Of a DNA stretch of 64,000 nt, positions 2,239 to 20,339 are shown piece by piece. Origin of the DNA: an uncultured Ectothiorhodospiraceae bacterium. GTDB lineage: Bacteria; Pseudomonadota; Gammaproteobacteria; UBA6429; Thiohalophilaceae. Both the position numbers and the translations under genes were made by a program. The stretch spans positions 1 to 64,000 of the forward strand of contig CAMYOL010000068.1 of the NCBI GenBank assembly GCA_947260005.1, written 5' to 3'. The first letter of the stretch is position 1. Every line of letters starts with the position of its first letter. The notes below the pieces were generated by a model. It made no database searches. It was not told where the DNA came from and was given only the letters and a program-made list of their open reading frames with translations.

Positions 2239-2787
2239 CTATTTATTTATGTAGTTTACAAACGTTTCACTCTTAAGTAATTGCGTGATTGCAGCGATGA
2301 TCGCCCCATCTAATGCTTGCGCAGAACTTCCGGCAGTTTGATAGGTTGCGCTTATTGCCGTAGATTTTCCATTACTCATGCTTGCAGTAATATCAAGGGA
2401 AGTTGATTTGTTAAAGGGTTTATTCGTTGCGTGTACATTACTGATTTTTAATGTGATCGTTTTATAATTAGAATCGGAAATTAATACACCACGTTTACTT
2501 AACTCGGACTCCAAAATTGAAATGGTTGCATCGGTATATTGTTGCAAGTCACCTAATAATTGAGTTGATTTTGAATCATCAAAAATCGTAACTTGCTCAG
2601 ATGACTGGTAATAGTTTTTTATAGCAACCGATTTGCCAGCAACCAGCGGCAATATTTTTTCTTTTACATGATGTCGTGTATGAGAGGCATTCACATACGT
2701 TGTACCCCCACAATTGACTAACAAAGCTGAAAATAGAATTATAAAACTTATTTTTATTGCGTGTTTTTGAAGTATATTCATTTGCAT
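2239..2787 (-). CDS. small putative lipoprotein, function unknown
   Basis: A 182-residue protein with an N-terminal hydrophobic helix ending LLVNCGG. The Cys sits where a lipobox is expected, although Asn at -1 is not the preferred residue, so lipidation is likely but not certain. The rest has the alternating pattern of a small periplasmic alpha/beta domain with no catalytic motif I recognise. The start overlaps the end of the upstream acyl-adenylating enzyme gene by 10 bases. A second Met (codon at 2781) has better spacing from an AAGG motif and may be the real start. It is the last gene of the leftward set that begins with the PAP2 phosphatase, so it is probably co-transcribed. Confidence 0.7.
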   Translation of the reverse strand: MQMNILQKHAIKISFIILFSALLVNCGGTTYVNASHTRHHVKEKILPLVAGKSVAIKNYYQSSEQVTIFDDSKSTQLLGDLQQYTDATISILESELSKRGVLISDSNYKTITLKISNVHATNKPFNKSTSLDITASMSNGKSTAISATYQTAGSSAQALDGAIIAAITQLLKSETFVNYINK

Positions 2788-4358
2788 AACCTTACCAATA
2801 GTTTATTCAGTGCGGGATAGTCTATTTTTGCATTATGCCGTTTATCCACTGGTACCTGAGCGACAGTATAAATCCTGTCAATTTTAGCCCACGCTAAATT
2901 CCGTTTTACTGACGCAGTATTCAAAACTGAATTATGGTGCATCTCTACAACCAGAACCCGTTGTTCCTTAAATGCGACCAGGGCACAACGTCGTACATTT
3001 GAATCACACCGTACAACTGTTTCAACCGCAAAGGGATAAAGCTCTCCATCCGAATCAGATATTTTTGCACTGCAACGCCCCATCAACCATATACGCCCTT
3101 GATCATCAAAATAACCTGCGTCACCCGTACGATGCCATGGCCGTCCCTCTACGGAAAATTTGGTTTCCTCGTTTCCGACGCCATTTAAATAGCCTGGTAA
3201 CACATGATCACCTGCCACCACTATTTCACCGGCCTCATAATTGGCTAAACACATCTCTAGTAATTGTTCTTGCGACATTGGCTCAATGGGTATGTTGGTC
3301 ACATCCTTTATGACCTTTACGTCTATTTGTTTAACAGGCTTACCCACCAATAAACCCTGACCTTTTTGCATATTACTAAAATCGTCTTCGCTAATATCTT
3401 GCCAGTGGATATGCGCAATCGGTTCCGCTTCGGTTGAACCATATACGGCAACCACCTCGGCATTGGATGCCAGTTGTTTCAATTGTGACAATAGACCTGG
3501 AAAAACCGGTGCGCCACCGGTATCGATTCGTTCAAAATTTAATTTTTGACCCTCATTTTTAAGACAATGATCAACTAATTGCTCATAAAAGGCAGGCGAT
3601 GCTGCACAACGTGTAGCTGAAAATGTCTTAGCCTGCTGCAATACGATACTTGCATCCACTTTTCCGGGGAAACGAAGGTCGACATCACATAATAAACTGG
3701 TTATCCCAGAAGCCAGATTGGCTAAGACAAAAATTGGTAAGGTACTCACATCTACCTGGCCAGGCTGATGATCAATGTTGTCGGCTAACACCTTGTGTTG
3801 TGCTAATAAAAACCCGTGCGTCCGGACTGCTGCCTTTGGCAGACCCGTACTACCACTGGTAAAAGTTATTAATGCAGGCAAATCATCTCTGGCATTTACT
3901 ACTTCAGTTAAAGGTTTGCATTGAGTTAAATCAGAAAATGATTTAGTAAATGGTAGCCAGCGTCCCACACCGATCTTGATTGGGATTGACCTCAACGACT
4001 TTGACGCGAAACGAAGAAGCTGCGCTTTACTACTGCCAATAAACGCCTTTGGCCTCACGCGCTGACAACACCGCTCCAGGTGATTGAGTCCTACGGATGG
4101 GTCAACAAACATGGCAACCAGGCCAAGCCTAAAGATCGCAACTAAAATAATATATAGCTCAGCACTAATGGGTTGAAAAATTAATATCGTGTCACCCTGT
4201 TTCAGCCCATACGAATTTAGTAAAGTCGCAAACCGTGCTGACTGGCTGTTTATTTGTAAGAAAGTGGTATGGCGTTCATGCCCGATCACACCATCTATAA
4301 TCGCCGTCTGACTTGCACGATGTTCAGCTTGTTGTTGCAGAACCTCGGCTATATTCAT
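2778..4358 (-). CDS. OleC-like acyl-adenylating enzyme / beta-lactone synthetase family
   Basis: ANL-superfamily AMP-forming enzyme, 526 residues. Visible motifs: the phosphate loop TFTSGSTGLPK near 165-175, VYGSTEAEP near 310, the hinge region HRTGDAGYFDDQGR, and a C-terminal PVDKRHNAKID. The C-terminal motif, the N-terminal RLGLVAMFVDP segment and the KAFIGS segment resemble OleC of the olefin pathway (OleABCD) more than ordinary acyl-CoA ligases. OleC turns beta-hydroxy acids into beta-lactones using ATP. No OleA, OleB or OleD is present in the window, so if it is a beta-lactone synthetase the lactone may be the end product. Its start lies three bases after the GNAT stop, which indicates an operon. 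A plain acyl-CoA or acyl-AMP ligase role is the alternative. Confidence 0.85.
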   Translation of the reverse strand: MNIAEVLQQQAEHRASQTAIIDGVIGHERHTTFLQINSQSARFATLLNSYGLKQGDTILIFQPISAELYIILVAIFRLGLVAMFVDPSVGLNHLERCCQRVRPKAFIGSSKAQLLRFASKSLRSIPIKIGVGRWLPFTKSFSDLTQCKPLTEVVNARDDLPALITFTSGSTGLPKAAVRTHGFLLAQHKVLADNIDHQPGQVDVSTLPIFVLANLASGITSLLCDVDLRFPGKVDASIVLQQAKTFSATRCAASPAFYEQLVDHCLKNEGQKLNFERIDTGGAPVFPGLLSQLKQLASNAEVVAVYGSTEAEPIAHIHWQDISEDDFSNMQKGQGLLVGKPVKQIDVKVIKDVTNIPIEPMSQEQLLEMCLANYEAGEIVVAGDHVLPGYLNGVGNEETKFSVEGRPWHRTGDAGYFDDQGRIWLMGRCSAKISDSDGELYPFAVETVVRCDSNVRRCALVAFKEQRVLVVEMHHNSVLNTASVKRNLAWAKIDRIYTVAQVPVDKRHNAKIDYPALNKLLVRLCK

Positions 4359-4361
4359 GAT

Positions 4362-5372
4362 TTAACGAAATGACCTGGAAAATAAGGTATAAGTGCGCAT
4401 TGGTGTTGCGTAATGCCCGCTTATGTTACGAGAAACATTACCGTTAAACATTAAGGCATGGATGGCTCGCTCAAAACCCATTACACGAGCCTGCTGCTGC
4501 ACCTTATCGACCAGCAATGCACCCAAACCGGCATGACTGTTTTCGGGTAATACCGCGACGGTTTTTATTATTACAGTCTTAACCTGTTCACCGCGCTCTT
4601 TTTCATTAGCATCCGGTATTGCAAATAAATAACCAATTGGCTGTTCATCTTTTTCAGCAATCAGGGTTAGTTCAGGTATAACCAGTTGTTTAACTTTCAT
4701 ATATTGGGTGACGAAATCTTCTTCGTCCAATGGCGTGTATAAATAGTTTTTACTAAAACTCTCCACCGAAATCGAATAGATCCGTCTCAGTTCTTGCTCA
4801 AAATTGTTTATATTCAGGTGGCGAAAGTAAATTCCTTTTTGTTGCAGGCGTTGCTCTACTTTTGGAAGACGTTCATCACGCTGGGTCAGGTCCGTCGTTA
4901 ACCCCGAACTGTATTCGGCCAATGGTTCAAAACCATAATCAATCCAGTACTTCGGCCAGCTCGGCGGGTTCGTTGGTTCAAGGAAAAATGGTGGTTCGCT
5001 TCCAGCATCGGTAACAAACCGATAACTGCGCCAGGTATTTCCGTCCATCGGGCCAATCGCGCGTGTACATTTCTGCATCTTTAATAAAAAACAGGCGTTA
5101 TTTAACATGACCTCCGTCGCCTTATCCTGCTCACTTTGATTATTGTCAGTCGCATAGTGACCAATAATGCCTAGCTTTTCGTTTTCAAGTTTTGGTACAT
5201 CAGTCCACCACAATGAACAACGCGCCTGAACCTGACCAAAATCATCCACGCACGCTAAATGCAGATCGACCTGTTGTTGCACCAGAATTTCAGGAGCAAA
5301 ACTTTGATATACACCGGCATTTAGATATTGTGCTAATTCCGACGGGGATTTAATTTGAGCTATTATTGACAC
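4362..5372 (-). CDS. GNAT-family acyltransferase
   Basis: A 336-residue protein. The C-terminal half (about 190-336) has a GNAT fold pattern, with the acetyl-CoA-binding segment PENSHAGLGALLVDKV followed by an Asn/Tyr-rich end. The N-terminal half is conserved-looking, with GPMDGNTWRSYRF near 118-130 and EPPFFLEPTNP near 140, and probably forms a second GNAT-like lobe. It would transfer an acyl group to an amine or alcohol; the substrate is unknown. The position between a P450 gene (28 bases upstream) and an OleC-like gene (3 bases downstream) suggests a tailoring step on a lipid-like small molecule. Confidence 0.8.
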   Translation of the reverse strand: MSIIAQIKSPSELAQYLNAGVYQSFAPEILVQQQVDLHLACVDDFGQVQARCSLWWTDVPKLENEKLGIIGHYATDNNQSEQDKATEVMLNNACFLLKMQKCTRAIGPMDGNTWRSYRFVTDAGSEPPFFLEPTNPPSWPKYWIDYGFEPLAEYSSGLTTDLTQRDERLPKVEQRLQQKGIYFRHLNINNFEQELRRIYSISVESFSKNYLYTPLDEEDFVTQYMKVKQLVIPELTLIAEKDEQPIGYLFAIPDANEKERGEQVKTVIIKTVAVLPENSHAGLGALLVDKVQQQARVMGFERAIHALMFNGNVSRNISGHYATPMRTYTLFSRSFR

Positions 5373-5400
5373 ACGTTCACCTGATTCACTTATTCGTTAT

Positions 5401-6675
5401 TTATTCTCGCCATTCAATATTCATCATTAGCTTATTGCGAACTCTAAGCGTAATACCGGGTTCTGGCTCGACCGATTCTTTGTTAACAAGCCGTAAACGG
5501 CAGCGTTGCAGCAAATAGACTAACACAATCATCGCCTCCTGAATGGCAAAGTTTTTCCCCAGACACATCCTGTGACCTAAACCGAATGGCATATAGGCCG
5601 TGCTGGCATCACGTTTACTATCAAACCGTTCGGGGTTAAATTTATCTGGGCTCTCCCAGAAATCCGGATGTCGGTGTAAAGTATAGATGCTTATAAATAG
5701 GGTCGAATTTTTTTTAATCTTATACCCTGCTATTTCATCGACGTCACGCGCACTGCGTTCGATCGCCCAGATTGGCGGATATAAACGAATAGCTTCATAA
5801 AAAACCTGAAGGGTGTAGGTTAAGTTCGATAGTTTTTCAATATCATCTACTGGACCATTAAAATGCTCAGTAATTTCATCGTAGACTTTTTGCTCGACGT
5901 CAGGATGTTGAGCCAGCAGATACCATACCCAGGTTAACGCATTTGCAGTCGTTTCATGACCAGCCAATAATAAAGTCACCACCTCATCTCGTAACCAGAC
6001 CGAGTCAAATAGTGTCTCACTTTGTTGTGCAGCGATCATTTTATCCAGCAAATCATTAGTATCGTGATTTTTAATAGTGAGACGCCGTTGTAAGATATTG
6101 TCGACTATATGATGTAATTTTTTACGTTCATGCTTGAAGCGCTGATTACCAGAGGTCGGAATCATCAGCGGAAGAGCAACTCCAAAGATCCTTCTGTAAA
6201 GATGCAACAATGACACTTCCATCGACTTTGCAACCTGGTCAGTCGTATGAGTTAAATCCTCACTTAATAAAGATTTTCCTATCACCTGATAAGTCAGGTG
6301 CATCATCGCAGAATGTATATCAACCGGTGTATTGTCGTTACGCCACTCCTCTAATAACAAATTACTCTCTGACTCGACGACATCTTTAAATTTTTTAACC
6401 GTATCAACTCGAAAGGTGTTTTGTAGCTGGCGTCGCTTATGATACCAACTGTCGCCATTATCCGTTAATAGGCTTTGCCCCGCCAACAACCGAATTTGCT
6501 GGCTGCTACGTCCATCTTTAAGGTAATTATCTTTGTTCGAGACAAGAACATGTTTAGCAAACTCTGGATGATTAAGTGAATAGTATTGAAGATGGGCAAG
6601 ACGAAAACTGACCATGTCACCATACTGGCGATGTAAATTTTTCAGCACGGTAAGCATATTGCCCCGTATGTCCAT
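5401..6675 (-). CDS. cytochrome P450 monooxygenase
   Basis: Haem-thiolate monooxygenase, 424 residues from the first ATG. The core signatures are present: oxygen-activating I-helix AGHETT, K-helix EAIR, NPERF, and the haem loop FGLGHRMCLG with the ligand at Cys371. It resembles the fatty-acid-hydroxylating CYP4/CYP102 group and has no fused reductase, so separate electron-transfer partners outside the window are needed. The start is a problem: the usual P450 N-terminal motif (PPGPNGLPLLGN) is encoded in frame at about 6679-6714, upstream of the first ATG, in a stretch open to 6765 that has no ATG, GTG or TTG. A non-standard start (ATA at 6726 or ATC at 6723, right after the PAP2 stop and a GGGAAAAA motif) or a frameshift from the PAP2 gene would supply it. 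Confidence 0.93.
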   Translation of the reverse strand: MDIRGNMLTVLKNLHRQYGDMVSFRLAHLQYYSLNHPEFAKHVLVSNKDNYLKDGRSSQQIRLLAGQSLLTDNGDSWYHKRRQLQNTFRVDTVKKFKDVVESESNLLLEEWRNDNTPVDIHSAMMHLTYQVIGKSLLSEDLTHTTDQVAKSMEVSLLHLYRRIFGVALPLMIPTSGNQRFKHERKKLHHIVDNILQRRLTIKNHDTNDLLDKMIAAQQSETLFDSVWLRDEVVTLLLAGHETTANALTWVWYLLAQHPDVEQKVYDEITEHFNGPVDDIEKLSNLTYTLQVFYEAIRLYPPIWAIERSARDVDEIAGYKIKKNSTLFISIYTLHRHPDFWESPDKFNPERFDSKRDASTAYMPFGLGHRMCLGKNFAIQEAMIVLVYLLQRCRLRLVNKESVEPEPGITLRVRNKLMMNIEWRE

Positions 6676-6727
6676 TACATTACCGAGTAATGGTAATCCA
6701 TTAGGTCCTGGTGGGTGCTTGATTATT

Positions 6728-7396
6728 TTATTTTTCCCGTTTTTCCCAGTTTTTAGAGCTGACCGCTATCCGTCGCATATAGAATCGTTCGGCCAACATG
6801 ATACCAATAAAAGCCGTCAATAACCCGCCAAATATATCGATTAAATAATGCTGCTTGGTGGTTAATACTGTTAATACTAATAGTATAAATACTAGTCCAT
6901 ATAACCAGGCCCATTTTTTGTGTTGTTGTGCCAGATACCAAAACCCTATCCCCGGAACACAAACATGACCTGAAGGAAAACAATTTGCAGGCGTATCTAT
7001 TCCCGTCAACCATAGATAAATCGCAGTCGTGACATTAGTCACTTCTGGAGCAGGCGGCCTGGGATATACGGTTGGAAAAAATAAAAAAATAGAGTAGTTA
7101 ATGGCAACCGCGAATCCAACCGCATACAACGACTTTATAAATGTCGATGGCGTATCTAAAAAAACGGGTAAATACATGCCACCAATTAAAAGAAAATAGG
7201 GTAATACTGTCCAGGGCAAAAAGGGAATATCGTTTTCGAATTCAAAAAGCATAAGTGACTTCGGTTCGAATACCTGGAATCGATTAGTCAACTGATAACC
7301 TACATATAGGAAAGAAGTCCAGACAAGGACAACCACGAATCTTCTTAGAAAAGGATATTTTCCTGATATATAAAGGCTAATCTTTTGCTCGATCAA
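6728..7396 (-). CDS. PAP2-family membrane phosphatase/phosphotransferase
   Basis: A 222-residue multi-pass membrane protein with about six hydrophobic segments. The PAP2 active-site motifs are visible: YPRPP near residue 110, CFPSGH near 143, and TTKQHYLID near 190. The TTKQHYxID form is typical of the PAP2_3 branch, which includes AUR1-like inositol-phosphate transferases and lipid phosphate phosphatases. It would hydrolyse or transfer a lipid phosphate at the outer face of the inner membrane. It is first in the leftward set with P450, GNAT and the OleC-like enzyme, and its 3' end overlaps the open P450 frame. Confidence 0.88.
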   Translation of the reverse strand: MIEQKISLYISGKYPFLRRFVVVLVWTSFLYVGYQLTNRFQVFEPKSLMLFEFENDIPFLPWTVLPYFLLIGGMYLPVFLDTPSTFIKSLYAVGFAVAINYSIFLFFPTVYPRPPAPEVTNVTTAIYLWLTGIDTPANCFPSGHVCVPGIGFWYLAQQHKKWAWLYGLVFILLVLTVLTTKQHYLIDIFGGLLTAFIGIMLAERFYMRRIAVSSKNWEKREK

Positions 7397-7531: not shown

Positions 7532-9796
7532 CTAAGCGTTTTCAGTCTTTTTGTTAGTCTTACTTTTCTTCACAGTCCCTTTAGCGGATGCATTGCTCAC
7601 GTTTGTTATCGATGAACTGGTCTGAGCAAAAACCCATTCAGGGACATTGCGAGCCATCAAGGTCTTCTTGCAGTGCTGTTGGTATTTTAGTGCCTCGCTC
7701 GGGTTATCTTTTGCAATAATTTCGCTGTACTGATCAATTTGTCGTTTGTAATTTATATGCCCTAACGTCTGCGCCGTGTAGTCGGCATCATCAATGAATA
7801 CCTGGGATAAGGATTCGTTTACCATACGATAATCAGATTTTGATTCAATAATTTTCACCTGCTTATTGGCAATTGCCGCCTGCATGGTGGCAACATCTCC
7901 AGATATATCCAATGATTTAAAGTTACGAAGTTTAGGTAAAGCTCGTGCAATTTTTGCCTGACGAGCGGCTTGTTTATTTGGTATGCGTATGATCAGCTCT
8001 TCTAAGATATCATTGGCCTTATTTAAAAACTGGCTGCCACCAAAAGTCAACACCTGCCCCACTTCCTGAGTAAAGACATCCTGCGCACAAACTTCTTCAT
8101 CGTGGGTGCGTGCGGCACTGATGCGGATTGGCAAAGCATTAGAGACAATCACTTCATCACCTAAGGTTAACATTGCCTGCACCGTGTAATTACCTGGTTC
8201 TGAAATATCCCAACCATTCTTACCGGCGGATAATAGCAACGTCTCATATAACGATTTTTCAGGATCGAGCAACATTATTTCTTTATCATGACAATAATGA
8301 GCAAAGGGTAACCACTGACGTGCAGGTAGACCGTCTTTTTTAATAATCATGGACATGTTTTCAAATTCGTTCAGTACATCTTTTTCAATCTGCTGCTGTC
8401 GGCTTGATACATTTTTTAGCTTCAATTCAAGATTAATCATCTCTAGAAACTCAAATACGGCCGAGCTTCGATTAACTCGAAGCTGCAAACTAAAATTTCT
8501 GGATTGTTCTTTTTCTATCTGTTCAAATCCATGATTATCAAACCAGTCCGCATTGCCCATTTGCACAAAATTACTCGGGGCATGGCGCATAAATAATAAC
8601 TCACTATCACTAAACCGATATTCAAAGTCCGAGAAAAAACTGGCCTGATCACCTTCGACAAAAAATGGATAATTCATAAAACTACGCGCTTCATTTTCGT
8701 TAGCCAACGGAAGCCAGGGATTGCCCAAAGATTTCTGCCAGGAATGAGCGAGGTTAAAGGCATGACCCATCTCATGCGCCGCTGTCCAGAAACGCATTCG
8801 TTTCACCCACGCATCTGGATGGGTATCACCGATAGGCGCATCTTCAATAAACGAGTCACTAAATATAGCAGTACCCTGACGATGATTTGGCCCGATTGAA
8901 TCAAACATCACGCCACCCAAGGTTGGACCCATATCATGTTGACGGGCAAACAGCGTCCACAACGACCATTGCGGCGCATTGTTAAACTTCGACCAGTAAC
9001 TTTGCATCGCATCGTGCATCTCTGCATCGCTCCAGGTATTGTTATTGCCAACGCCTTCAATCGGTACCTCACCGCTGCCACCTGAATTGGTCACATCAAA
9101 ACCTGCTCGCCTATACACAGTGTTAAGTGATAAATTCTCACAGGCAATCGTTGCAGGTCGGTTTGGATGAGCACAACTCTCAATACGGGTCACGGCCTTT
9201 TCAAAAGGTACATCTGAAACCCGGTCATACTCAAATTCAACAGGATGATAATAAGTAGATTTAAAATTAAAGATTAACGATCTTGAAGGCGCACCACCAC
9301 CATAGAAGGTTGCCTTTAATCGACGCTGATAAGGATACCAGCTACGTTTCACTGAAATACGCACACGGGTATGTCGCATCGCATTACGCGGACCATCTTT
9401 GTACCAGATACGACCCAACCAGGTATTTGCGCTACGTGTTCGCGACAAATGTGCTATCCAGTGCACACTACTTAACAAACCGGTTCGAACCGTCCCACTG
9501 GCCTGTATCTGTGGATAACGACCATCTACATCAAGACGCAAAACCTCTTTATATTTAGGTGAAGGCCGATAGGGGAAAAAACCCATCTCGTTTTCAAATT
9601 CATCAAAAGACTCATCTACCCCCGAACGTTCACTTCGTCTGCTCCCCCTTCGCCCCCGACTCTCGTATAAACCGCTGACCGACAATTGTGGCAACATCGG
9701 AATATGAAACTCATTTGTCGCATCCGCCTCCAGGGTATTATCAAAATCAACGTCCTGCATCGAAATGTCGTCATGACTTATTTCATTGTCATCCAT
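7532..9796 (-). CDS. metzincin-type zinc metalloprotease, no signal peptide
   Basis: A 754-residue protein. The zinc site HEMGHAFNLAH (His341, Glu342, His345, His351) matches HExxHxxxxxH of metzincins, with Asn at the usual Gly position. The later SFMNYP supplies the Met-turn. Residues 1-90 are acidic with an Arg-rich patch; about 90-200 is a beta-rich domain; about 255-420 is the protease; the C-terminal part holds another beta-rich domain (about 480-570) and a Lys-rich tail. I chose the ATG at 9796 because GGAGAAAA precedes it at the right distance; an in-frame ATG at 9823 has no such site. There is no signal peptide or transmembrane helix, so it is either cytoplasmic or exported by a dedicated system. 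Substrate unknown. Confidence 0.8.
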   Translation of the reverse strand: MDDNEISHDDISMQDVDFDNTLEADATNEFHIPMLPQLSVSGLYESRGRRGSRRSERSGVDESFDEFENEMGFFPYRPSPKYKEVLRLDVDGRYPQIQASGTVRTGLLSSVHWIAHLSRTRSANTWLGRIWYKDGPRNAMRHTRVRISVKRSWYPYQRRLKATFYGGGAPSRSLIFNFKSTYYHPVEFEYDRVSDVPFEKAVTRIESCAHPNRPATIACENLSLNTVYRRAGFDVTNSGGSGEVPIEGVGNNNTWSDAEMHDAMQSYWSKFNNAPQWSLWTLFARQHDMGPTLGGVMFDSIGPNHRQGTAIFSDSFIEDAPIGDTHPDAWVKRMRFWTAAHEMGHAFNLAHSWQKSLGNPWLPLANENEARSFMNYPFFVEGDQASFFSDFEYRFSDSELLFMRHAPSNFVQMGNADWFDNHGFEQIEKEQSRNFSLQLRVNRSSAVFEFLEMINLELKLKNVSSRQQQIEKDVLNEFENMSMIIKKDGLPARQWLPFAHYCHDKEIMLLDPEKSLYETLLLSAGKNGWDISEPGNYTVQAMLTLGDEVIVSNALPIRISAARTHDEEVCAQDVFTQEVGQVLTFGGSQFLNKANDILEELIIRIPNKQAARQAKIARALPKLRNFKSLDISGDVATMQAAIANKQVKIIESKSDYRMVNESLSQVFIDDADYTAQTLGHINYKRQIDQYSEIIAKDNPSEALKYQQHCKKTLMARNVPEWVFAQTSSSITNVSNASAKGTVKKSKTNKKTENA

Positions 9797-10321
9797 TAGC
9801 TTTTCTCCATTAATTATTATCAATATATTTACTTTTTATGGGGCGAAACGACTACCGGCAACTGATGACGCACTGCTGGCGATAATGTCAGAGTCTACTA
9901 ATGAATTACTTAAAAATAACAAACATTCTTCACAATTTAATTCATTATCTGGCGTTAATTATTTCAAATGATTTTTATCGATTGTTAGTTACTGGATACG
10001 ATTTTGGCGAAATGACGAAAACTTTAATATTAAAAAGTCATGTCTAAATTCCATGGTCTTCCTATACAAGTATTGGTTAGGTTTTCTGCATAGCACTCAT
10101 TGCTGAGTTATAGAGTTACTTACCATAATTTATTCCAGGTTGGGTCAGGCTTGCTATTGATTCATCTGAGTATATGTTCATTTATCACCACACTAAGCCT
10201 TTAGTCGCCTCCTGCTGGATTACTCGCCCGATGAATGCGAGTCTAGTTATATCGCACATTTAATGTCTGTTATTACCTTAGTTAGTAGGCAAAAAATTGT
10301 ATAACATGGATGGAGGTTATA
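9797..10321. other. 525-base intergenic region between divergent genes
   Basis: AT-rich stretch between the divergent metalloprotease and cytochrome-like genes. It must hold both promoters, but I see no convincing -35/-10 pair, no RNA gene and no long repeat. Short open frames here lack ribosome-binding sites. Confidence 0.5.
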
Positions 10322-11422: not shown

Positions 11423-11734
11423 TTAAATATATAACCGTTGATCTGACAGCCACTCAGTAGAACCGAGCGTCTGTAAGGTCCAATTACCAACAACAGATGG
11501 GCAGTTCGACTTATCAGAAAAATAGTAGGTGTTTAACACGATTACCCTTCAACTTTTAACAATCAGTAATTGTGACTATCCACTTCACTGGCGTATTAAC
11601 TCATTGTTTTTAATAGACTTATTAATCGCCAAGCAAAATAGTGCGAAATAACTATTGACGTATATTAATATTTGATTATATTCTAATAATCAAAGCACTT
11701 TTAGTACATTTTTTTATTTTAAGAGAGAGAAATT
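11423..11734. other. intergenic region upstream of the rhodanese gene
   Basis: Becomes AT-rich towards its right end. It holds the likely rhodanese promoter at 11655-11682; I see nothing else in the remainder. Confidence 0.4.
11655..11682 (+). promoter_or_regulatory. probable sigma-70 promoter of the rhodanese gene
   Basis: TTGACG (11655-11660), a 16-base spacer and TATATT (11677-11682), about 52 bases before the ATG at 11735. Confidence 0.5.
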
Positions 11735-12616: not shown

Positions 12617-13930
12617 TTATACGAATCCAGCGGCAATCAACGACACCGCAAATCCAATTCCAGCTTGACGCCAGAACCGTGCATTATTAATCGGGCAATC
12701 TTTGATATCAGGTTGTAGATAGTAAAAACTGACTACGGCAATGGCGACTAAACTCGCACCCAAGCTCGCATTGGCGATCGCCGTAAAATCAATCCCCACG
12801 ATTAACATCCAGGGTATAAAGATGATAATACCGGCCTGCACTGTGCAACGTGTCCACAATATAATTCTATTTATGTCGGGGAATTGGTGATGTAAACGCG
12901 CAAGACCGATCATCCCTAACTGCGCTGCAAAACTAACTGTGTATGGATAATACAGTTCGTTAATATTTTGATCTCGAGCGATAAACAACCAGACCATGCC
13001 CGGCACGGTGACGGAAAGAACAGCACGAGCATCATGAATGCGTTCTGTGTTTTCCTGTGTTTTCGGCGACAACACATGATAACTAATAAATACTAATATC
13101 GCTGGCAATAACCAGGTCCAGTCACCTGCGGCCCAACAGAGATACCCTGCCAGGGCGGCGGCTAAGGCGGCACTGTCATTTAAGGTCGTACGTTTTCGAT
13201 ATAGAAAGAAAAACACAAATAAAGCGACAATGACTATCAACCGAACACTTAATTCGGGCACGTTCATGTCCATATAGACTTTTAACAACAAAAATCCGCC
13301 TAATGGAATAAACAGGTTGTCGAGACCCTGCCACGACACCGCCTCGATGTACATGACTAAGGTGGCGATGATTAGCGCAATTAACAGAGTTTCAGTGCGG
13401 CCAACCTCGGTAAATAACAAAAGCGGAATCAAGGTGACTAACAGTGCCATAGTAAAAAAGGCAATTGAGCCTTCTGTGCTTTTAACGCCATCGGAGGTGG
13501 TGTATTTAATTGTGCCATAACGTACACCAATTAATGCGGCGACCGCATCGGCCAGGGTTAAGATCAGCACGGGAATGATATACAGGATCGGGGCGTCCTG
13601 ACTCAGGGTAAAAATAATAGCAATTGAAATCGGAAAATAGATCTCACCTAAGGACTGCCGAGCCACCCCGTGCACCACATTGCTGATGGATTTGGTTTTT
13701 ATAAACTTAACTGCTAACAAGGCGATGACGGCCAGTACGGCGAGTAAGATAACGGGCCAGGCCGTACTAAATATCCAGGGGAAACTTAGCGTGACCAGCC
13801 CCATGCCAATGTGTAATAACTTGCGAACTAATTCTGGATGGGGCTGTTTGTTTTTCTGGTAGTAGGCCAATGCACCGACAAGCCCCGCCAATAAAGATAA
13901 AACGATGATAATCCCAAACCATGGATTCAA
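12617..13930 (-). CDS. membrane phytol/dolichol-kinase-like protein with a second membrane domain
   Basis: A 437-residue multi-pass membrane protein. Residues about 30-215 match the phytol kinase/dolichol kinase/CTP-transferase family: HPELVRKLLHIGMG near 32, LADAVAALIGVRYG near 126-139, and KSTEGSIAFF near 150. Such enzymes phosphorylate long isoprenoid alcohols using CTP. The C-terminal half (about 230-437) is another set of membrane helices beginning with TLNDSAALAAALAGYL, which weakly resembles the DUF92 family that includes phytyl-phosphate kinase VTE6, though the family's DTxxSE motif is not visible. If the resemblance holds, the protein would carry both steps from alcohol to diphosphate. 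Its start lies two bases after the DUF3419 gene, indicating co-translation. Confidence 0.8.
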   Translation of the reverse strand: MNPWFGIIIVLSLLAGLVGALAYYQKNKQPHPELVRKLLHIGMGLVTLSFPWIFSTAWPVILLAVLAVIALLAVKFIKTKSISNVVHGVARQSLGEIYFPISIAIIFTLSQDAPILYIIPVLILTLADAVAALIGVRYGTIKYTTSDGVKSTEGSIAFFTMALLVTLIPLLLFTEVGRTETLLIALIIATLVMYIEAVSWQGLDNLFIPLGGFLLLKVYMDMNVPELSVRLIVIVALFVFFFLYRKRTTLNDSAALAAALAGYLCWAAGDWTWLLPAILVFISYHVLSPKTQENTERIHDARAVLSVTVPGMVWLFIARDQNINELYYPYTVSFAAQLGMIGLARLHHQFPDINRIILWTRCTVQAGIIIFIPWMLIVGIDFTAIANASLGASLVAIAVVSFYYLQPDIKDCPINNARFWRQAGIGFAVSLIAAGFV

Positions 13931-13932
13931 AC

Positions 13933-15030
13933 CTAGATCACCTCTTCGACGATGAACTTACTGTAAAAAAAGGCCTTGTCATCTAAATGTAATCGTTCTG
14001 ATAATTCTGTTAACGGTTTTATTCGGTCATAATAGCTTTTCGGAGATTCGCGCGGGGCTAACATGTTCCAGTAGGCGAGGCGTGCGCCAGAAGCCCCTGC
14101 TTCGATGAGCTTATCCAACAAAGTAGTAAAACTGTCTTCGGACATGTATTCAAAGATATCACTCAGATTATAACCGGCAATGGCATTGGCTCCCGCCTCT
14201 TCTAAATAGGCCTCAATCGATGACTGTCTCCACTCCAGGCGATCCAGATTATTCCTGATCTTATCAAAATTTTCTTCACGCAAAGCAAATGGCAGGGCAT
14301 AGGGATGCTCTCCGGTGAGTATCCATTGCAAATAAGGATTCTCGGATGGGTTTAATTCAGTTAAGGCATGTTTAGTACGCTCCAGTATTCTGTCCGCGAC
14401 ACTGCCTTCGACGTATTGAAAAAAACTGGGGTCCCGTCCCATGCGTCCCATCACAAAACGGGAAAAAAATATTTTAAATAAGGCCCGCCAACGCCAGTTG
14501 TTCCAGACATTATCATAAAAGGTTTTACGGTAGGTAAGATCACCACCCTGGATTAGCTGGTTAATGCGTTTACGTGAATGTATTAACGGGATGACTTTGT
14601 TTTTAAATAAAGCAAAATAACGTTCGAATTTTCCGGCCGCCCCAATCCCCTGTTCGATCGCATCGCTTTTATTATCCCAAAATGTTTGTTCTTGTTTTGT
14701 TAATAAGGATCGGCAGCGTTGATAGAGATCGGCACGTTGCTGGCTTGGTTTTGAACCGATGAGTTCTAATAATTCAGAATGCTTGAGTTCTTTATAGGCG
14801 GCAACTCTTAGCGCCAGACAATTTAATTGGGTGGTATTTAGATCCAATGCGACAACGCGTTCGGGTGACTGGCTTAAAATTGCCAATGCATTGTCACCGG
14901 CAGATGCGATTGATAAATAGACGCCCCCTTTACTTGGCACTAATGCCTCGACCAGGATATCCGCATCTTCCCAGCATTGGGCATATCGAATCAGATCAAA
15001 TTCGGCACGTGCTTCTACTTCTGATGACAT
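13933..15030 (-). CDS. BtaA-like (DUF3419) AdoMet 3-amino-3-carboxypropyl transferase
   Basis: A 365-residue protein with the opening YAQCWEDADILVEAL, the nucleotide-binding segment SIASAGDNALAIL (about 40-52) and VVALDLNTTQL, all features of the DUF3419/BtaA family. BtaA transfers the 3-amino-3-carboxypropyl group of S-adenosylmethionine to diacylglycerol, the first step of betaine-lipid synthesis. BtaB, the N-methyltransferase that completes that lipid, is not in this window. Given the isoprenoid neighbours, the acceptor could be a different lipid alcohol. It is separated from the upstream phosphotransferase gene by 260 bases and nearly abuts the downstream kinase gene. Confidence 0.85.
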   Translation of the reverse strand: MSSEVEARAEFDLIRYAQCWEDADILVEALVPSKGGVYLSIASAGDNALAILSQSPERVVALDLNTTQLNCLALRVAAYKELKHSELLELIGSKPSQQRADLYQRCRSLLTKQEQTFWDNKSDAIEQGIGAAGKFERYFALFKNKVIPLIHSRKRINQLIQGGDLTYRKTFYDNVWNNWRWRALFKIFFSRFVMGRMGRDPSFFQYVEGSVADRILERTKHALTELNPSENPYLQWILTGEHPYALPFALREENFDKIRNNLDRLEWRQSSIEAYLEEAGANAIAGYNLSDIFEYMSEDSFTTLLDKLIEAGASGARLAYWNMLAPRESPKSYYDRIKPLTELSERLHLDDKAFFYSKFIVEEVI

Positions 15031-15290
15031 CTAACGAACTCCCCACGTATTTATTATATTTTTAGTATTCCATAAATGAATTCTTGCTTCTCGAGATTCC
15101 TGTTCCCGTCGTTCCCCTGGAGAGGGGAATCTATTATATATGGATTACCGCCTCGGCCCTGGCTCCTGCTTCGCCCTACCGCCTACGTCCATGTAGGCGT
15201 CCGCGGGTAAAGTGCCCCCACGGGTATGTCTGGGGATGACAGTATATTCGGAAATGATGCCGCGAGTTCAATAATGACGGCATCAAACCT
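15031..15290. repeat. palindrome-rich intergenic stretch, possible degenerate dispersed repeat
   Basis: Holds several short perfect inverted repeats: TTCCCCT/AGGGGAA (15112-15129), CGCCTAC/GTAGGCG (15180-15199) and CCCCA/TGGGG near 15211-15235. It is richer in G+C than other gaps here. The pattern resembles the dispersed non-coding repeats common in Gammaproteobacteria. It interrupts an otherwise tightly packed operon and could affect expression of the two downstream genes. Confidence 0.4.
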
Positions 15291-18095
15291 TTAATCAATT
15301 TCTTGTTCGTATATTCCTCTTTGGGTGGGATCAAATACCTTTTCATCTTTGGGTTTAGCAACCACTTCACCCTCTACTTCATCTATATCAAGATCATCAT
15401 GCTGATTTTCATCGAGTCTATCATTGTGTTTTTGTTCGTCTAATTCGGTATTTATTTTTCTAACACTACCAAGTCGGCCATCCATCTCAACCCAATCACC
15501 ATCTTTTAACCAATCGGTTACGCCATCGAGCGAGACGACTGCCGGTATGCCCATTTCTCGTGCCACAATTGCGGAGTGTGATAACAGGCTACCGTGCTCG
15601 ACTAATAACCCCGAGGCGGCCGGGAATAACATGATCCAGCCGGGATCGGTTCGTTCTGCCACCAGGATCTCTCCCTGATGTAATTCAACTCCACGCGGAT
15701 CGCGCACGACTCGCACCTGGCCTTTTACCACACCAGGACAACAACCTATGCCCTTTAGCTCATCGCCCTCAACGGGTAATTTTTCTCGTGGTGACTGGAA
15801 ATCATGACCATGATAGATAATGCCACGCGTTTCAAATCGATCTGATGGGCTGGCGGAGTTTTCATATTCATTAAATTCTTTTTTACGTAGTGCGATCAAT
15901 GCCATTAAATCATTGGTGGTTGCCGTCCCCTCGATATAACTTACGATCTCGCCCACCTCAAGGTAAAATATATCGCGAGGCTCACTTATAAGTCCAAAGT
16001 CTCGTAAACGGAATCCGACTTCTACAAAAATATTTCGAATACGGCCAAAAACCCGGGTTCGTTCAAAACGTAGATTTTCACGATCCGATACCCGCCTCCT
16101 GGCATTTTTAAGCACCCAGGCAAAAAGCGTTTTACGAATATAACTGCCCGCAAATAATTCACGCACATGATCCTCGGCTAATATTCGTTGCTGGCGATCT
16201 TTTTGCTGTTTCTCGGGTTGCGTCTGTAATCTTCGAGCCATATGCCCAATCGAACGTAAAACCGGTAGCGGATTATCATGTAAAGTCGGGCTTTCGAGTT
16301 TTAATTCATCCAGGCAACGATCACCAAACTTCTTCAGGTAAGCATAATATTCGGCATAAAATTCCTGATAGTTTGGCAGACGTCGGTAGATATCCAATAC
16401 ACTGCCTTCGCATAATAAGTCGATCAGCTCAGGATAGAGGAAGATCATCTCGGCCATTTTTCGAATTCGTTGTGCAGGCTCAGCACTAATGATGTCGCCC
16501 TCGCCAACAAGTAAATCATTTTGCAAAGTACCATCAGTGTCATCACACCATTTTTCAGTGAGCTTTTTTAATATGCCATAGAAGATCATTGCAAAGAAAT
16601 CATTGATCAGTGGCGCATCCCAGCGTTTTAATAGCTGACACTCAAGTGCATGGTAATACTCGATTAATTCATCCGCTCTTTTATGTTGAATTGGTATCGC
16701 TGGATCCGCTAACGCTGTGTTTAAACGTTTATAGAATCGTTTTATCTTGCCGGATATTAAAAAGTGGTTTATTAGCAGGCCAAACAAGGTAGACGATAAC
16801 CGCATGCCATCTCGTAACTTAGCCCATTTTGAACCTGGCTTGTCTATCTTATTGATGACTTCCTCAGGCATGGTTTCCTTGACGCCCATCATCTGTTCCA
16901 TGAAGCTACGATTCATCTGGAAACCGGGTAATAATGCCAACACCTGATACCAGCTAATAAGATTATAATAAACCTGGCCCCGTACCAGACCCAGCATGCG
17001 CGCAAATAGCGCATCGTTTTGAGCAATGATTTTTTTCGGTACGCGCATCAAATGACAAAACTCACGATACACCGAGGTATAGGCACGACTGGCAAACGAG
17101 AAGGTCAGTGGTGTGGTCACACCGCGATAACTCTCGGCAATATTGCTGTTATCCCAAATAATCAGGTTGGCATCGGGATCCGCCATTTGTTGGATTGAGG
17201 TAATAGGACGAGATTGTAACAAGTAGATCTTGTTTTCAAATCTTGCCCACTCAATATCTTGTGGACAATTAAAATACTTTTCACTGCGTCGAACCAGACG
17301 GGCAATCTCTTTGACTTCTTCATCACTTAACACAGACTGGCTTGCCATATCACCGTCCAGATCTTTTAACTTCACACCCTCGACCGCGGTTGGATCCATT
17401 TCGTGCGCCTGGCGCTTATTAGCAATCTCGCATTTGCTAATCTCCTCAACACGATTCACATAATAGGTATCAGCATCAACATCCCCTGAAACCAGCGCGC
17501 TGCCTAAGCCATAAACTGCACCAACGACTGATACCGTACGTTGGCCCGTCACTGGATCGGCACTAAACGCCACCCCTGCTGCCTCCGCATTGATCATCTT
17601 TTGTATCAACACCGCCGGTGCAGGTGGCGGCAAGCTCAATTTATTCTCCTGACGATAGGTATAGATTCTTTCAGAAAAACCGGATCGCCAGACCTGTATT
17701 ATTCTTTGCGCCAACTGTTGTTTATCGACAAACAACACACTCTCAAGCTGTCCGGCAAAGGAATGCTCGGCCCCATCTTCATCAAGCGCAGACGAGCGTA
17801 CCGCAACCAATTCATCATCGGGACATAAACGAGACATCGCATTAGCAAGTAAATTGCTTAATTTGTGGGTGATCGTTAGTTGAGATAATGATGACTGCAA
17901 CTGATCAAAGCTCATTTGCGAGTCAGAATCTGTCCACTTTTGTGTTAAATCTTCGGGCAAACTTTCATAAAAAGCATCCGGTGTAATAACAAACCATTCA
18001 GGGATTGCAAAATTAGCTAATTCTAAATTAGCCAGAGCACGCGCTTTACCGCCAATATTTATATTGTCGTTAATTTGTTCTGAAAAATAAATCAT
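15291..18095 (-). CDS. PEP-synthase-like phosphotransferase with rifampin-phosphotransferase domain plan
   Basis: A 934-residue protein. Residues 1-about 310 are the ATP-binding domain of the PEP synthase/PPDK family (INIGGKARALANLELANF; AVRSSALDEDGAEHSFAGQ; GVAFSADPVTG; LLQSRPIT). About 315-740 is a helical middle domain. About 790-890 is the swivelling phosphohistidine domain, with SLLSHSAIVAREMG and His840. The C-terminal PEP/pyruvate-binding barrel of true PEP synthase is absent, so the order ATP domain, substrate domain, His domain matches rifampin phosphotransferase. It probably transfers the beta-phosphate of ATP to an organic acceptor, here perhaps an isoprenoid alcohol. The acidic tail (about 890-934) is unusual. 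It lies ten bases after the prenyltransferase gene. Confidence 0.88.
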   Translation of the reverse strand: MIYFSEQINDNINIGGKARALANLELANFAIPEWFVITPDAFYESLPEDLTQKWTDSDSQMSFDQLQSSLSQLTITHKLSNLLANAMSRLCPDDELVAVRSSALDEDGAEHSFAGQLESVLFVDKQQLAQRIIQVWRSGFSERIYTYRQENKLSLPPPAPAVLIQKMINAEAAGVAFSADPVTGQRTVSVVGAVYGLGSALVSGDVDADTYYVNRVEEISKCEIANKRQAHEMDPTAVEGVKLKDLDGDMASQSVLSDEEVKEIARLVRRSEKYFNCPQDIEWARFENKIYLLQSRPITSIQQMADPDANLIIWDNSNIAESYRGVTTPLTFSFASRAYTSVYREFCHLMRVPKKIIAQNDALFARMLGLVRGQVYYNLISWYQVLALLPGFQMNRSFMEQMMGVKETMPEEVINKIDKPGSKWAKLRDGMRLSSTLFGLLINHFLISGKIKRFYKRLNTALADPAIPIQHKRADELIEYYHALECQLLKRWDAPLINDFFAMIFYGILKKLTEKWCDDTDGTLQNDLLVGEGDIISAEPAQRIRKMAEMIFLYPELIDLLCEGSVLDIYRRLPNYQEFYAEYYAYLKKFGDRCLDELKLESPTLHDNPLPVLRSIGHMARRLQTQPEKQQKDRQQRILAEDHVRELFAGSYIRKTLFAWVLKNARRRVSDRENLRFERTRVFGRIRNIFVEVGFRLRDFGLISEPRDIFYLEVGEIVSYIEGTATTNDLMALIALRKKEFNEYENSASPSDRFETRGIIYHGHDFQSPREKLPVEGDELKGIGCCPGVVKGQVRVVRDPRGVELHQGEILVAERTDPGWIMLFPAASGLLVEHGSLLSHSAIVAREMGIPAVVSLDGVTDWLKDGDWVEMDGRLGSVRKINTELDEQKHNDRLDENQHDDLDIDEVEGEVVAKPKDEKVFDPTQRGIYEQEID

Positions 18096-18105
18096 ATTCT
18101 TAATT

Positions 18106-19047
18106 TCATATCATCTTAAAATAAAATAGTGTTAAGGGTACAACGCCTAAGCTCAGGTACATTAACAAGGTCCAGATCCCTGACATCTTTTCAATCCACG
18201 ACGCACGTTGACTGTTTGGCTCATGTAAAAATTTAACCGCCAAAATGCTGGCCAGCGCGATCAACACCGCCAGCATCACCAGGACCTGATAAAAGAAATC
18301 AATCAATGCCGCCGCTGCACTGGCAGAGATGGCGGTAATGATCATCGCCGACAACCATAATATGACCGCTCTTTTGCGACCCCATAAAACAGTATAGGTC
18401 TCTACACCCTCTTCTTCATCCTCGGGGGCCCGAATCTTGCGCCCGACTTCTATAACAATGCCGTTAAAAAAACTAACGATTAAAAACCAGAACAACCCAT
18501 GGGGTGGGCTGGTTAAACCGGCACTCATCCAGTCCGTTGCGGTGGCATAGAAATCAATTAACGGCATGATCAACATATGTGACCACATATAAGTAATGGG
18601 ACTTTGTTTTAACCAATCGGCAACAAAAAATTCTTTACTCATTAAAGCCAGATAGAGCCAGGTGATCAACAACGGGATGATCAGCAAATAATTCAACCAA
18701 ACCGCCAGAACTAATTGGATCAATATAATAAAGGCCCCGATCCAGCCTAATTCTTTTAATGATACCAGGCCCCGTGGTACCGGACGATAAGGGCGGTATT
18801 GGCTATCTTCTTCAAAATCCTTAAATTCGTCGGCAATGCGTAATAATAAAAAGAAAATAAAGGAGGTTATAAAGGCCACACTCAATACGGCCACACTGGG
18901 TAACTCAATGCTCGTGGAGAGACCCAGGTTATGACGTAATAAAATAGAGAAGCTGACAGCAGAAAAGCTAAAGGCAACGACCAGCAGGCCATTTGCAAAG
19001 ACCGGGAATCGTTCGCGTTGATACACCCACCAGCGGTTAAGACTCAT
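18106..19047 (-). CDS. UbiA-superfamily membrane prenyltransferase
   Basis: A 313-residue protein with about eight or nine membrane helices. The first Asp-rich motif is DEFKD (Asp73-Asp77), followed by RPYRPVPRGLVS. The second is shifted and very acidic (RAPEDEEEGVETY, about 196-210) but sits where UbiA enzymes have their second Mg-diphosphate site. It would join a prenyl diphosphate to an acceptor in the membrane. The motifs do not decide between an aromatic acceptor and a glycerol or other alcohol acceptor. It does not look like housekeeping UbiA and no ubiC is adjacent. It lies 14 bases after the HMG-CoA reductase gene and 10 bases before the phosphotransferase gene. Confidence 0.88.
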   Translation of the reverse strand: MSLNRWWVYQRERFPVFANGLLVVAFSFSAVSFSILLRHNLGLSTSIELPSVAVLSVAFITSFIFFLLLRIADEFKDFEEDSQYRPYRPVPRGLVSLKELGWIGAFIILIQLVLAVWLNYLLIIPLLITWLYLALMSKEFFVADWLKQSPITYMWSHMLIMPLIDFYATATDWMSAGLTSPPHGLFWFLIVSFFNGIVIEVGRKIRAPEDEEEGVETYTVLWGRKRAVILWLSAMIITAISASAAAALIDFFYQVLVMLAVLIALASILAVKFLHEPNSQRASWIEKMSGIWTLLMYLSLGVVPLTLFYFKMI

Positions 19048-19061: not shown

Positions 19062-20339
19062 TCAGGCCTTTTCTGCTCCGCGCGCAAGATTTTTATGAGC
19101 ACGGGTGAAATGGCCTGCAGCTAATGCACCGATAATTGATAACTCACCCGCCAGCGCAACACTCGCGGTGACCTCGGCAAAGGCCTGTGCGTGTCCGGCA
19201 CCGGCCAAGCCCATAATTTCCAGACAAGCACGCTGACTAGGCAGACCAGTGCCACCGCCTACCGTACCCACAATTAAGTTTGGCATGGTCACCGCTGCAT
19301 ACAATCCACCGTCTTTATTAACTTCAAAACGCGTTACCCCGACCGCAGACTCTGCGACACAGGCGGCATCTTGTCCACAGGCAATATATAGCGCGGCTAA
19401 TCCATTTGCATAATGCCCCTGCACACCAATGGTCCCGCTCAATACCCCTCCCATAGCCGACATACGCCAATAGTCCACCATTTTTTCGGGGGTGGTGTGT
19501 AGCATCTTTTTAATCAGTTCTTTACTTAAATGAATTTCCGTTGTGACCTTTTTGCCCCGCACGGATAAAAATGATTGCGCACTGGCTTTTTTATCACCCG
19601 ATAGGTTAGCTTCAACAAAATGGTATTCCGGGTTAACCGGGGTGTTTTCAATGATATAGGCCACCACAGAATCGGTCGCAATGGTCACCATGTTTTGACC
19701 ACCGGCATCACCGGTTGAATATTCAAAGATTAAGTAAACATGATTGCCTTCCACGGTAATCCGCATATCGACCAATTGGCCATGCGCAGTAGTTTGCTCG
19801 GCTATATCAGTAAATTTTTCCTGACTGGAAATGGCCCACATTGAAAAACGACCGGCATCGTGAACATTTTTAAATGCAAAACCGGGCGCACGACTCACAC
19901 CTTCATTCAGTAGAATCGCGGTACATCCACCGGCCTTGGTGATAAGTTGCGCACCGCGATTATAAGATGCAACCAATGCAGCTTCAGATGTGGCAAGCGG
20001 AATATTGTAATCACCTTGTGCGAATAGACCGTTAACGCGTAATGGTCCGGCTAACCCGATCGGTAATTTTATGGTGCCGATAAAGTTTTCGATATTTTTT
20101 TTATAGATCTGCATTTGTGCTTTTGTTTGCGGATCAAGTATTTGTTGTTGAGCCGTGTCATCAAGTTCAAGCACATCCCAGCGTGCTTGCACAGCTTCAT
20201 CAGTCAGTTTGTGATTGCGGGGTAGACGCTGGTAGGGTAAATCGGGTTTTGTGGCTAAGCGTTTTTCTAATTCTGATTCATCTAAACCGGCTAAATATTT
20301 TGCTAAAAAAAGACTGGCTCGATCTTTGTTTGCTGCCAT
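19062..20339 (-). CDS. hmgA: class I HMG-CoA reductase
   Basis: Reduces HMG-CoA to mevalonate with NAD(P)H. The 425-residue soluble catalytic domain shows the class I signatures ENFIGTIKLPIGLAGPL (84-100), PLATSEAALVASYNRG, GDAGGQNMV, GDKKAS, CGQDAA and VGGGTGLPSQ. The catalytic residues are all present: Glu119, the Lys250/251 pair, Asp324 and His415. There is no membrane anchor, as in archaeal and bacterial enzymes. A good ribosome-binding site (GGGAGA) precedes the ATG, and a TATAAT-like sequence lies at 20395-20400 on the minus strand. It is the first gene of the five-gene operon. No other mevalonate-pathway gene is in the window, and most Gammaproteobacteria use the MEP pathway, so acquisition by transfer is likely. 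Confidence 0.95.
   Translation of the reverse strand: MAANKDRASLFLAKYLAGLDESELEKRLATKPDLPYQRLPRNHKLTDEAVQARWDVLELDDTAQQQILDPQTKAQMQIYKKNIENFIGTIKLPIGLAGPLRVNGLFAQGDYNIPLATSEAALVASYNRGAQLITKAGGCTAILLNEGVSRAPGFAFKNVHDAGRFSMWAISSQEKFTDIAEQTTAHGQLVDMRITVEGNHVYLIFEYSTGDAGGQNMVTIATDSVVAYIIENTPVNPEYHFVEANLSGDKKASAQSFLSVRGKKVTTEIHLSKELIKKMLHTTPEKMVDYWRMSAMGGVLSGTIGVQGHYANGLAALYIACGQDAACVAESAVGVTRFEVNKDGGLYAAVTMPNLIVGTVGGGTGLPSQRACLEIMGLAGAGHAQAFAEVTASVALAGELSIIGALAAGHFTRAHKNLARGAEKA

What the first reader, a model, noticed from the sequence alone, without database searches (positions are those of the whole stretch)
2239..7396. OleC-like / P450 / GNAT / PAP2 gene set, possible beta-lactone or modified-lipid pathway
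OleC-like enzymes close beta-hydroxy acids into beta-lactones. Here one sits with a fatty-acid-type P450, a GNAT acyltransferase, a PAP2 phosphatase and a lipoprotein, without the OleA/B/D genes of olefin synthesis. A P450 could make the hydroxy acid and a GNAT could acylate the product. No standard secondary-metabolite core is present, so it may escape routine detection.
Basis: partly seen in the sequence, partly recalled or inferred. Interest (0 to 1): 0.65.

Follow-up and report, generated by a model that had tools for sequence, protein, structure and literature searches.

The report
Widespread fatty-alcohol lipid gene cluster

Summary
The five genes at 2239-7396 are real, but the interesting unit is larger and different. 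The AMP-ligase and GNAT are the 3' end of a seven-gene set: HMG-CoA-reductase homolog (19062-20339), UbiA (18106-19047), PPDK/rifampin-phosphotransferase-like enzyme (15291-18095), DUF3419/BtaA-like (13933-15030), CdsA-fold membrane protein (12617-13930), GNAT, AMP-ligase. About 5 kb of other genes split the set in the window; elsewhere it is usually contiguous. All seven occur together in 40 of 80 homologous GTDB loci, and in 25 of the 33 loci of at least 20 kb; the 80 loci span 16 named phyla. P450 and PAP2 are optional; the lipoprotein was found nowhere else. The ligase is a sister of OleC, not an OleC. The "HMG-CoA reductase" carries the signature of FcrA, an HMGR homolog that turns fatty acyl-CoA into fatty alcohol (PMC11948995), and 36 of 38 cluster genomes tested lack HMG-CoA synthase. 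Best reading: an undescribed lipid pathway built on a fatty alcohol, with phosphorylation, chain transfer, an aminocarboxypropyl group and N-acylation. The beta-lactone idea is not supported. The gene association is strong; substrates, step order and product are inferred.

The parts
19062..20339 (-). HMG-CoA-reductase homolog of FcrA type (predicted fatty acyl-CoA reductase)
   Evidence: PF00368 386 bits; below the HMGR equivalog cut-off, 339 against 441.8 bits; catalytic E84, K250, D324, H415 and signature E243, F411 in 42 of 42 cluster homologs
18106..19047 (-). UbiA-family membrane transferase with replaced second Asp motif
   Evidence: PF01040 56 bits; only PDB match DGGGP synthase 6m31, 2e-8; D73, D77, D81 and R203, K204 in 55 of 55
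15291..18095 (-). PPDK_N plus PEP-utilizer mobile domain protein, rifampin-phosphotransferase-like dikinase
   Evidence: catalytic His840 in 54 of 54
13933..15030 (-). DUF3419/BtaA-like protein, predicted 3-amino-3-carboxypropyl transferase
   Evidence: PF11899 224 bits, cut-off 28.2
12617..13930 (-). Multi-pass membrane protein (called KIN here); N-terminal half has a CdsA-like fold, predicted CTP-using lipid phospho- or cytidylyltransferase
   Evidence: no Pfam family over cut-off; model pLDDT 94; best match CdsA 4q2g, Z 9.0, rmsd 4.8, 163 residues
4362..5372 (-). Tandem-GNAT acyltransferase
   Evidence: PF00583; model pLDDT 92, MAB_4324 Z 22.8, mycothiol synthase Z 20.5
2778..4358 (-). AMP-forming ligase, sister clade of OleC
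   Evidence: PF00501; NF006754 404 bits, cut-off 478; tree
5401..6675 (-). Cytochrome P450, accessory; true N-terminus lies upstream to about 6720
   Evidence: PF00067; P450 in 10 of 80 loci; upstream frame
6728..7396 (-). PAP2-family phosphatase, accessory
   Evidence: PF14378 33 bits; absent before the P450 in G002 and G003; 43% identical homolog in one frame with a P450 in L056
2239..2787 (-). Small predicted lipoprotein, probably local and not part of the pathway
   Evidence: no family; found in 1 of 83 stretches, the window itself

Best explanation
Part of a conserved, undescribed bacterial lipid-biosynthesis cluster built on a fatty alcohol. Proposed order: (1) the AMP-ligase activates a fatty acid, for the GNAT and perhaps also for the reductase; (2) the FcrA-type HMGR homolog reduces fatty acyl-CoA to a fatty alcohol with NADPH; (3) the rifampin-phosphotransferase-like enzyme, and possibly the CdsA-fold membrane protein, phosphorylate it; (4) UbiA joins the activated chain and a hydroxyl acceptor, giving an ether-type lipid; (5) the BtaA-like enzyme adds 3-amino-3-carboxypropyl from S-adenosylmethionine; (6) the GNAT acylates the amino group. 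P450 and PAP2 are optional tailoring. Shown here: gene association, family assignments, conserved catalytic residues, FcrA signature. Inferred: all substrates, the order and the product.
For: Association: GNAT and KIN hit exactly the same 5 of 144 relatives (strong hits); all seven genes in 25 of 33 loci of at least 20 kb. FcrA signature in 42 of 42 as published. No HMG-CoA synthase in 36 of 38 and IspG of the MEP pathway in 35 of 38 cluster genomes. In L050, without an HMGR homolog, an AMP-ligase and an ACP-fatty-acyl-reductase-kinase protein stand beside GNAT, ligase and UbiA. Sibling sets in G008 and G072 carry CDP-alcohol transferase and CarS-like domains. In G108 the HMGR homolog lies near an acyltransferase-AGPS fusion. 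MMPL-type transporters lie in 4 loci.
Against: No enzyme was assayed. UbiA's second Asp motif is replaced, so ordinary prenyl transfer is uncertain, and a saturated alkyl donor would be new for the family. 8 of 33 long loci lack the HMGR homolog, and of 16 genomes behind HMGR-less loci only 3 carry it elsewhere. G002 and G003 show no HMGR or UbiA hit, though they are broken assemblies. KIN's function rests on a weak fold match. G040 has PPDK and BtaA without the rest on that contig, and G200 a ligase alone. The 80 loci were picked by GNAT motifs, which favours complete sets.
Confidence: 0.55

Rival explanations
1. Beta-lactone natural product: the OleC-like ligase closes a beta-hydroxy acid, made with the P450, to a beta-lactone and the GNAT acylates it.
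For: The ligase clade is the sister of OleC. A sibling ligase in G008 is fused to an alpha/beta-hydrolase domain, which recalls OleBC fusions (recalled).
Against: Outside the OleC clade and far below the OleC cut-offs; P450 in only 10 of 80 loci; the partners are a reductase, kinases, UbiA and BtaA, not OleA or OleD types.
Confidence: 0.07
2. Isoprenoid pathway: the HMGR homolog makes mevalonate (for instance from HMG-CoA of leucine breakdown) and UbiA, kinases and PAP2 handle prenyl phosphates to make a prenylated compound.
For: Closest solved relative is a methanogen HMGR; UbiA's only PDB match is DGGGP synthase; the PAP2, PPDK and KIN types fit phosphate chemistry.
Against: FcrA signature instead of HMG-binding residues; no HMG-CoA synthase in 36 of 38 and MEP pathway present in 35 of 38; a fatty-acyl-reductase protein in place of the HMGR homolog in L050.
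Confidence: 0.12
3. Same lipid theme, different chemistry: the ligase activates the carboxyl of the aminocarboxypropyl group and the HMGR homolog reduces it to an amino alcohol, which the GNAT acylates to a ceramide-like lipid.
For: Uses all seven enzymes in one chain; GNAT and ligase are neighbours in 75 cases.
Against: Sibling sets keep HMGR homolog, ligase, UbiA and PPDK without BtaA; known FcrA prefers chains of at least 14 carbons.
Confidence: 0.12
4. The PPDK-like protein is a ligase of the prodigiosin PigC type and the cluster makes a soluble secondary metabolite.
For: PigC model 343 bits, far below its 1300 cut-off; a gene next to the G072 sibling set matches PigE and acyl-ACP reductase models.
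Against: PRK06241-type models score higher (782 bits) and the best solved matches are 5fbs/5hv1; the other enzymes are lipid and membrane types.
Confidence: 0.08

Closest known systems
FcrA, HMGR-related fatty acyl-CoA reductase (Grossi et al. 2025, PMC11948995; abstract, sections 18-20 and passages read)
   Same: Catalytic residues kept, Ser684 replaced by Glu, Leu862 by a bulky residue; host genomes without the mevalonate pathway.
   Different: Found here inside a seven-gene set with UbiA, PPDK, BtaA, GNAT and KIN; the paper's text has no mention of UbiA, prenyltransferase or gene cluster.
OleC beta-lactone synthetase
   Same: The cluster ligases are its sister clade.
   Different: Far below OleC cut-offs, different partners.
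BtaA of betaine-lipid (DGTS) synthesis
   Same: Full-length PF11899 match, 224 bits.
   Different: No methyltransferase family recurs in 3 or more of the surveyed flanks; GNAT, UbiA and reductase partners instead.
Archaeal ether-lipid synthesis (DGGGP synthase, CarS)
   Same: UbiA resembles DGGGP synthase; sibling sets carry CarS-like and archaetidylserine-synthase-like domains.
   Different: Second UbiA motif altered; GGGP synthase and G1P dehydrogenase were not searched for.
Ether-lipid synthesis of myxobacteria (ElbD) and AGPS route (as described in PMC11948995 section 20)
   Same: Fatty alcohol made by an acyl-CoA reductase; L106 carries a ligase-ACP-reductase protein, G108 an AGPS fusion.
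   Different: No AGPS or ElbD in the main cluster; UbiA would have to form the ether.

Membership tests
FcrA fatty acyl-CoA reductase | HMGR catalytic Glu, Lys, Asp, His kept | tested here: met
   E84, K250, D324, H415 in 42 of 42
FcrA fatty acyl-CoA reductase | Ser684 replaced by Glu | tested here: met
   E243 in 42 of 42; Ser in the solved HMGRs aligned
FcrA fatty acyl-CoA reductase | Leu862 replaced by a bulky residue | tested here: met
   F411, four before catalytic H415, in 42 of 42
FcrA fatty acyl-CoA reductase | Substrate-binding Lys (printed as Lys795 in the paper) replaced by small residues | tested here: inconclusive
   The Lys that I recall as K735 falls in a gap of the alignment; the paper's number could not be matched
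FcrA fatty acyl-CoA reductase | Reduces long-chain acyl-CoA, not HMG-CoA | not testable with these tools
   Needs an assay
HMG-CoA reductase of the mevalonate pathway | HMG-CoA synthase in the genome | tested here: not met
   PF08540 absent from G000 and 36 of 38 genomes
OleC beta-lactone synthetase | Score over the curated OleC cut-off | tested here: not met
   247 and 237 bits against 900 and 850
OleC beta-lactone synthetase | Falls inside the OleC clade | tested here: not met
   Sister to a four-member OleC clade with SH-aLRT 99 (quick tree)
BtaA betaine-lipid synthase | DUF3419 domain over cut-off | tested here: met
   224 bits, cut-off 28.2
BtaA betaine-lipid synthase | BtaB methyltransferase partner | tested here: inconclusive
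   No methyltransferase family recurs in 3 or more flanks; genomes were not searched for BtaB
Rifampin phosphotransferase-type dikinase | ATP-binding domain, phospho-His domain, catalytic His, no PEP barrel | tested here: met
   PPDK_N 14-305 and PEP-utilizers 806-876 only; His840 in 54 of 54
UbiA prenyltransferase | UbiA fold over cut-off | tested here: met
   PF01040 56 bits, cut-off 34.2
UbiA prenyltransferase | Two Asp-rich motifs | tested here: not met
   First kept in 55 of 55, second replaced by R203, K204 (55 of 55) and R206 (52 of 55)

The most novel reading that the evidence does not exclude
The cluster makes an unknown class of bacterial membrane lipid: a fatty-alcohol-derived chain joined by a non-canonical UbiA transferase and carrying an N-acylated 3-amino-3-carboxypropyl group. 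It would be a counterpart of betaine or sphingolipids, spread over many phyla and overlooked because its key enzyme is annotated as HMG-CoA reductase.
Probability: 0.3. Interest if true: 0.85.

Novelty: new variant of a known kind. Interest (0 to 1): 0.62.

Why it matters
A seven-enzyme set kept together from Gammaproteobacteria to Verrucomicrobiota, Planctomycetota and Gemmatimonadota, with partial sets in Cyanobacteriota and others, very probably makes something useful, yet my searches found no description of it. If it is a lipid pathway, it would explain what many bacterial class I "HMG-CoA reductases" do in genomes without the mevalonate pathway, which the FcrA paper leaves open where wax-ester synthase is missing. 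It gives lipidomics a defined target in cultured strains.

Tried and rejected
Beta-lactone or OleC assignment: rejected by model scores and tree. PAP2 and lipoprotein as core: rejected, found in 2 and 1 of 83 stretches. Mevalonate role of the HMGR homolog: rejected as the default. My idea that E243 marks an amine-bearing substrate was demoted after reading the FcrA paper. KIN as a proven phytol or dolichol kinase: dropped; that name came from recalled motifs, no family passed its cut-off, and Foldseek gave no PDB match at E 0.001 or better.

Test for replacement of the HMGR homolog by a fatty-acyl reductase: PF07993 is too broad (50 of 50 genomes). At 140 bits, a threshold chosen after seeing the list, it is 8 of 13 HMGR-less against 7 of 37 HMGR genomes, Fisher p 0.011, confounded by phylum; only suggestive. 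Literature searches that brought nothing on the cluster: (one search gave the FcrA paper). Rows set aside: one search kept the best 80 of 153 relatives; the tree used 38 of the cluster ligases, 32 of them a random sample; alignments left out short or low-scoring copies (42 HMGR, 55 UbiA, 54 PPDK, 62 BtaA, 53 KIN, 82 GNAT, 70 ligase kept).

Full report
What is there. The window is C68:1-64000 of a 3.71 Mb genome, 99.5% complete; the nearest named relatives are MAGs called Ectothiorhodospiraceae and Gammaproteobacteria (L039, L040). The P450's conserved N-terminus lies upstream of its first standard start codon.

The real unit is larger. In 144 relatives the GNAT gave strong hits (E 1e-38 or better) in five genomes, G000, G002, G003, G104 and G123 (15 more had weak hits), and the membrane protein at 12617-13930 (KIN) hit exactly the same five. 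In G123 and G104 the GNAT-ligase pair directly follows HMGR homolog, UbiA, PPDK-like, DUF3419 and KIN. The same five genes lie in the window at 12617-20339, in the same order and strand. About 5 kb of other genes (7532-12325) split the set here; the gene at 7532-9823 also precedes the P450 in G002 and G003, so the split is probably shared by these three genomes. PAP2 is absent from that place in G002 and G003.

Spread. A scan of GTDB contigs with a GNAT alignment found 153 relatives; the best 80 were kept. In the 80 loci: GNAT 80, ligase 72, BtaA 63, KIN 58, PPDK 57, UbiA 53, HMGR 42, P450 10, PAP2 1; all seven core genes in 40. In the 33 loci of at least 20 kb: ligase 33, UbiA 32, PPDK 32, BtaA 32, KIN 30, HMGR 25; all seven in 25. 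The 80 loci fall in 16 named phyla plus two without one; complete sets are in 9 named phyla. Organism names of MAGs are as deposited. Two orders dominate: the window's (31 of 83 stretches) and one with GNAT-ligase at the front (8 of 83). GNAT and ligase are neighbours in 75 cases, median gap 16 bases between matched stretches, which suggests that the ligase feeds the GNAT. PPDK and BtaA share one frame in G104, PAP2 and P450 one frame in L056. The loci were picked by GNAT motifs, so they lean towards complete sets.

The ligase. In a 60-row tree the cluster ligases and the four OleC sequences share a branch with SH-aLRT 100 against 15 ordinary acyl-CoA ligases, but OleC forms its own clade (SH-aLRT 99, a quick tree with several long branches). 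The window ligase scores 247 and 237 bits on OleC models whose cut-offs are 900 and 850. It is a sister of OleC, not a member.

The HMGR homolog. Its closest solved relative is a methanogen HMGR (303 bits), but it misses the NCBIfam cut-off (339 against 441.8 bits). HMG-CoA synthase (PF08540) is absent from G000 and from 36 of 38 cluster genomes, of which 37 carry the homolog and one (L090) does not. IspG of the MEP pathway is found in 35 of 38. Grossi et al. 2025 (PMC11948995; abstract, sections 18-20 and passages read) characterised FcrA, an HMGR homolog that makes fatty alcohol from fatty acyl-CoA and does not use HMG-CoA; catalytic residues are kept, Ser684 is Glu and Leu862 a bulky residue. 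In 42 aligned cluster homologs the catalytic residues are kept and the two positions are Glu (E243) and Phe (F411) in 42 of 42. I therefore read it as FcrA-type. The paper proposes ether-lipid roles for some FcrA; its text has no mention of UbiA, prenyltransferase or gene cluster.

Support from substitutions and siblings. L050 has GNAT, ligase and UbiA but no HMGR homolog in its 13.9 kb, nor in its genome; it carries instead an AMP-ligase and an ACP-fatty-acyl-reductase-APH-kinase protein. L106 carries a ligase-ACP-reductase protein on the other strand. In G008, of the window's own family, a sibling set holds an HMGR homolog fused to an APH kinase, a CDP-alcohol-transferase/CarS-like fusion, a formyltransferase-like protein, a hydrolase-ligase fusion, UbiA and PPDK; its kinase part matches the L050 protein at 3e-71. 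In G072, two PPDKs, CDP-alcohol transferase, CarS-like and UbiA stand together. In G108 the HMGR homolog lies near an acyltransferase-AGPS fusion (AGPS 4bby, 3e-142). These contexts point to lipids. E243 is also Glu in the G008, G108 and G056 homologs but Ser in G064.

Other enzymes. UbiA keeps the first Asp motif (55 of 55) but has Arg/Lys in place of the second, so its donor may not be an ordinary prenyl diphosphate. The PPDK-like protein has the two end domains and the catalytic His (54 of 54) and no PEP barrel; its best solved matches 5fbs and 5hv1 are rifampin phosphotransferases by recall. The GNAT model (pLDDT 92) is a tandem GNAT, MAB_4324 Z 22.8 and mycothiol synthase Z 20.5. KIN's best fold match is CdsA (Z 9.0, 163 residues, rmsd 4.8), weak for a helical protein.

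Against the reading: 8 of 33 long loci lack the HMGR homolog; of 16 genomes behind HMGR-less loci 3 carry it elsewhere. G002 and G003 have no HMGR or UbiA hit, though they are broken assemblies. G040 has PPDK and BtaA without the rest on that contig and G200 a ligase alone.

Mechanism: see Best explanation. Shown: association, families, conserved residues. Inferred: substrates, order, product. Novelty: nine searches of open-licence PubMed Central papers brought up no description of the cluster; papers not held there could describe it. I read PMC11948995 in part and passages of PMC12419801; all other papers I saw only in listings.

Noticed in passing
window 6676-6768, minus strand: The P450's conserved N-terminus is in an open stretch without ATG, GTG or TTG, overlapping the end of PAP2 in another frame; in L056 PAP2 and P450 are one frame, in G002 and G003 the P450 has its own ATG.
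   Followed up: partly
L171 (G008:C34:70000-89999): Sibling set with HMGR homolog fused to an APH kinase, CDP-alcohol transferase fused to CarS-like, and alpha/beta-hydrolase fused to an OleC-like ligase.
   Followed up: partly
L175 (G108:C128:1-14000): HMGR homolog near an acyltransferase-AGPS fusion, a DegT-type aminotransferase and a CDP-alcohol transferase: a possible separate ether-lipid set.
   Followed up: partly
L118, L115, L113, L090: MMPL/Patched-type transporter genes beside the cluster.
   Followed up: no
L082, L083, L091: Class III aminotransferase, a second PPDK-like and a SnoaL-like gene inserted in the cluster in place of KIN.
   Followed up: no
L042, L045, L100: Sulfotransferase-like gene beside the P450 near the cluster.
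   Followed up: no
window 7532-12325: Unrelated genes split the cluster: a 763-residue protein with a weak metallopeptidase match, a 370-residue protein with a CAICH heme-type motif, and a rhodanese.
   Followed up: no
window 20569-25272: A 1567-residue protein that looks like many leucine-rich repeats lies just upstream of the cluster on the same strand; no family search was run on it.
   Followed up: no
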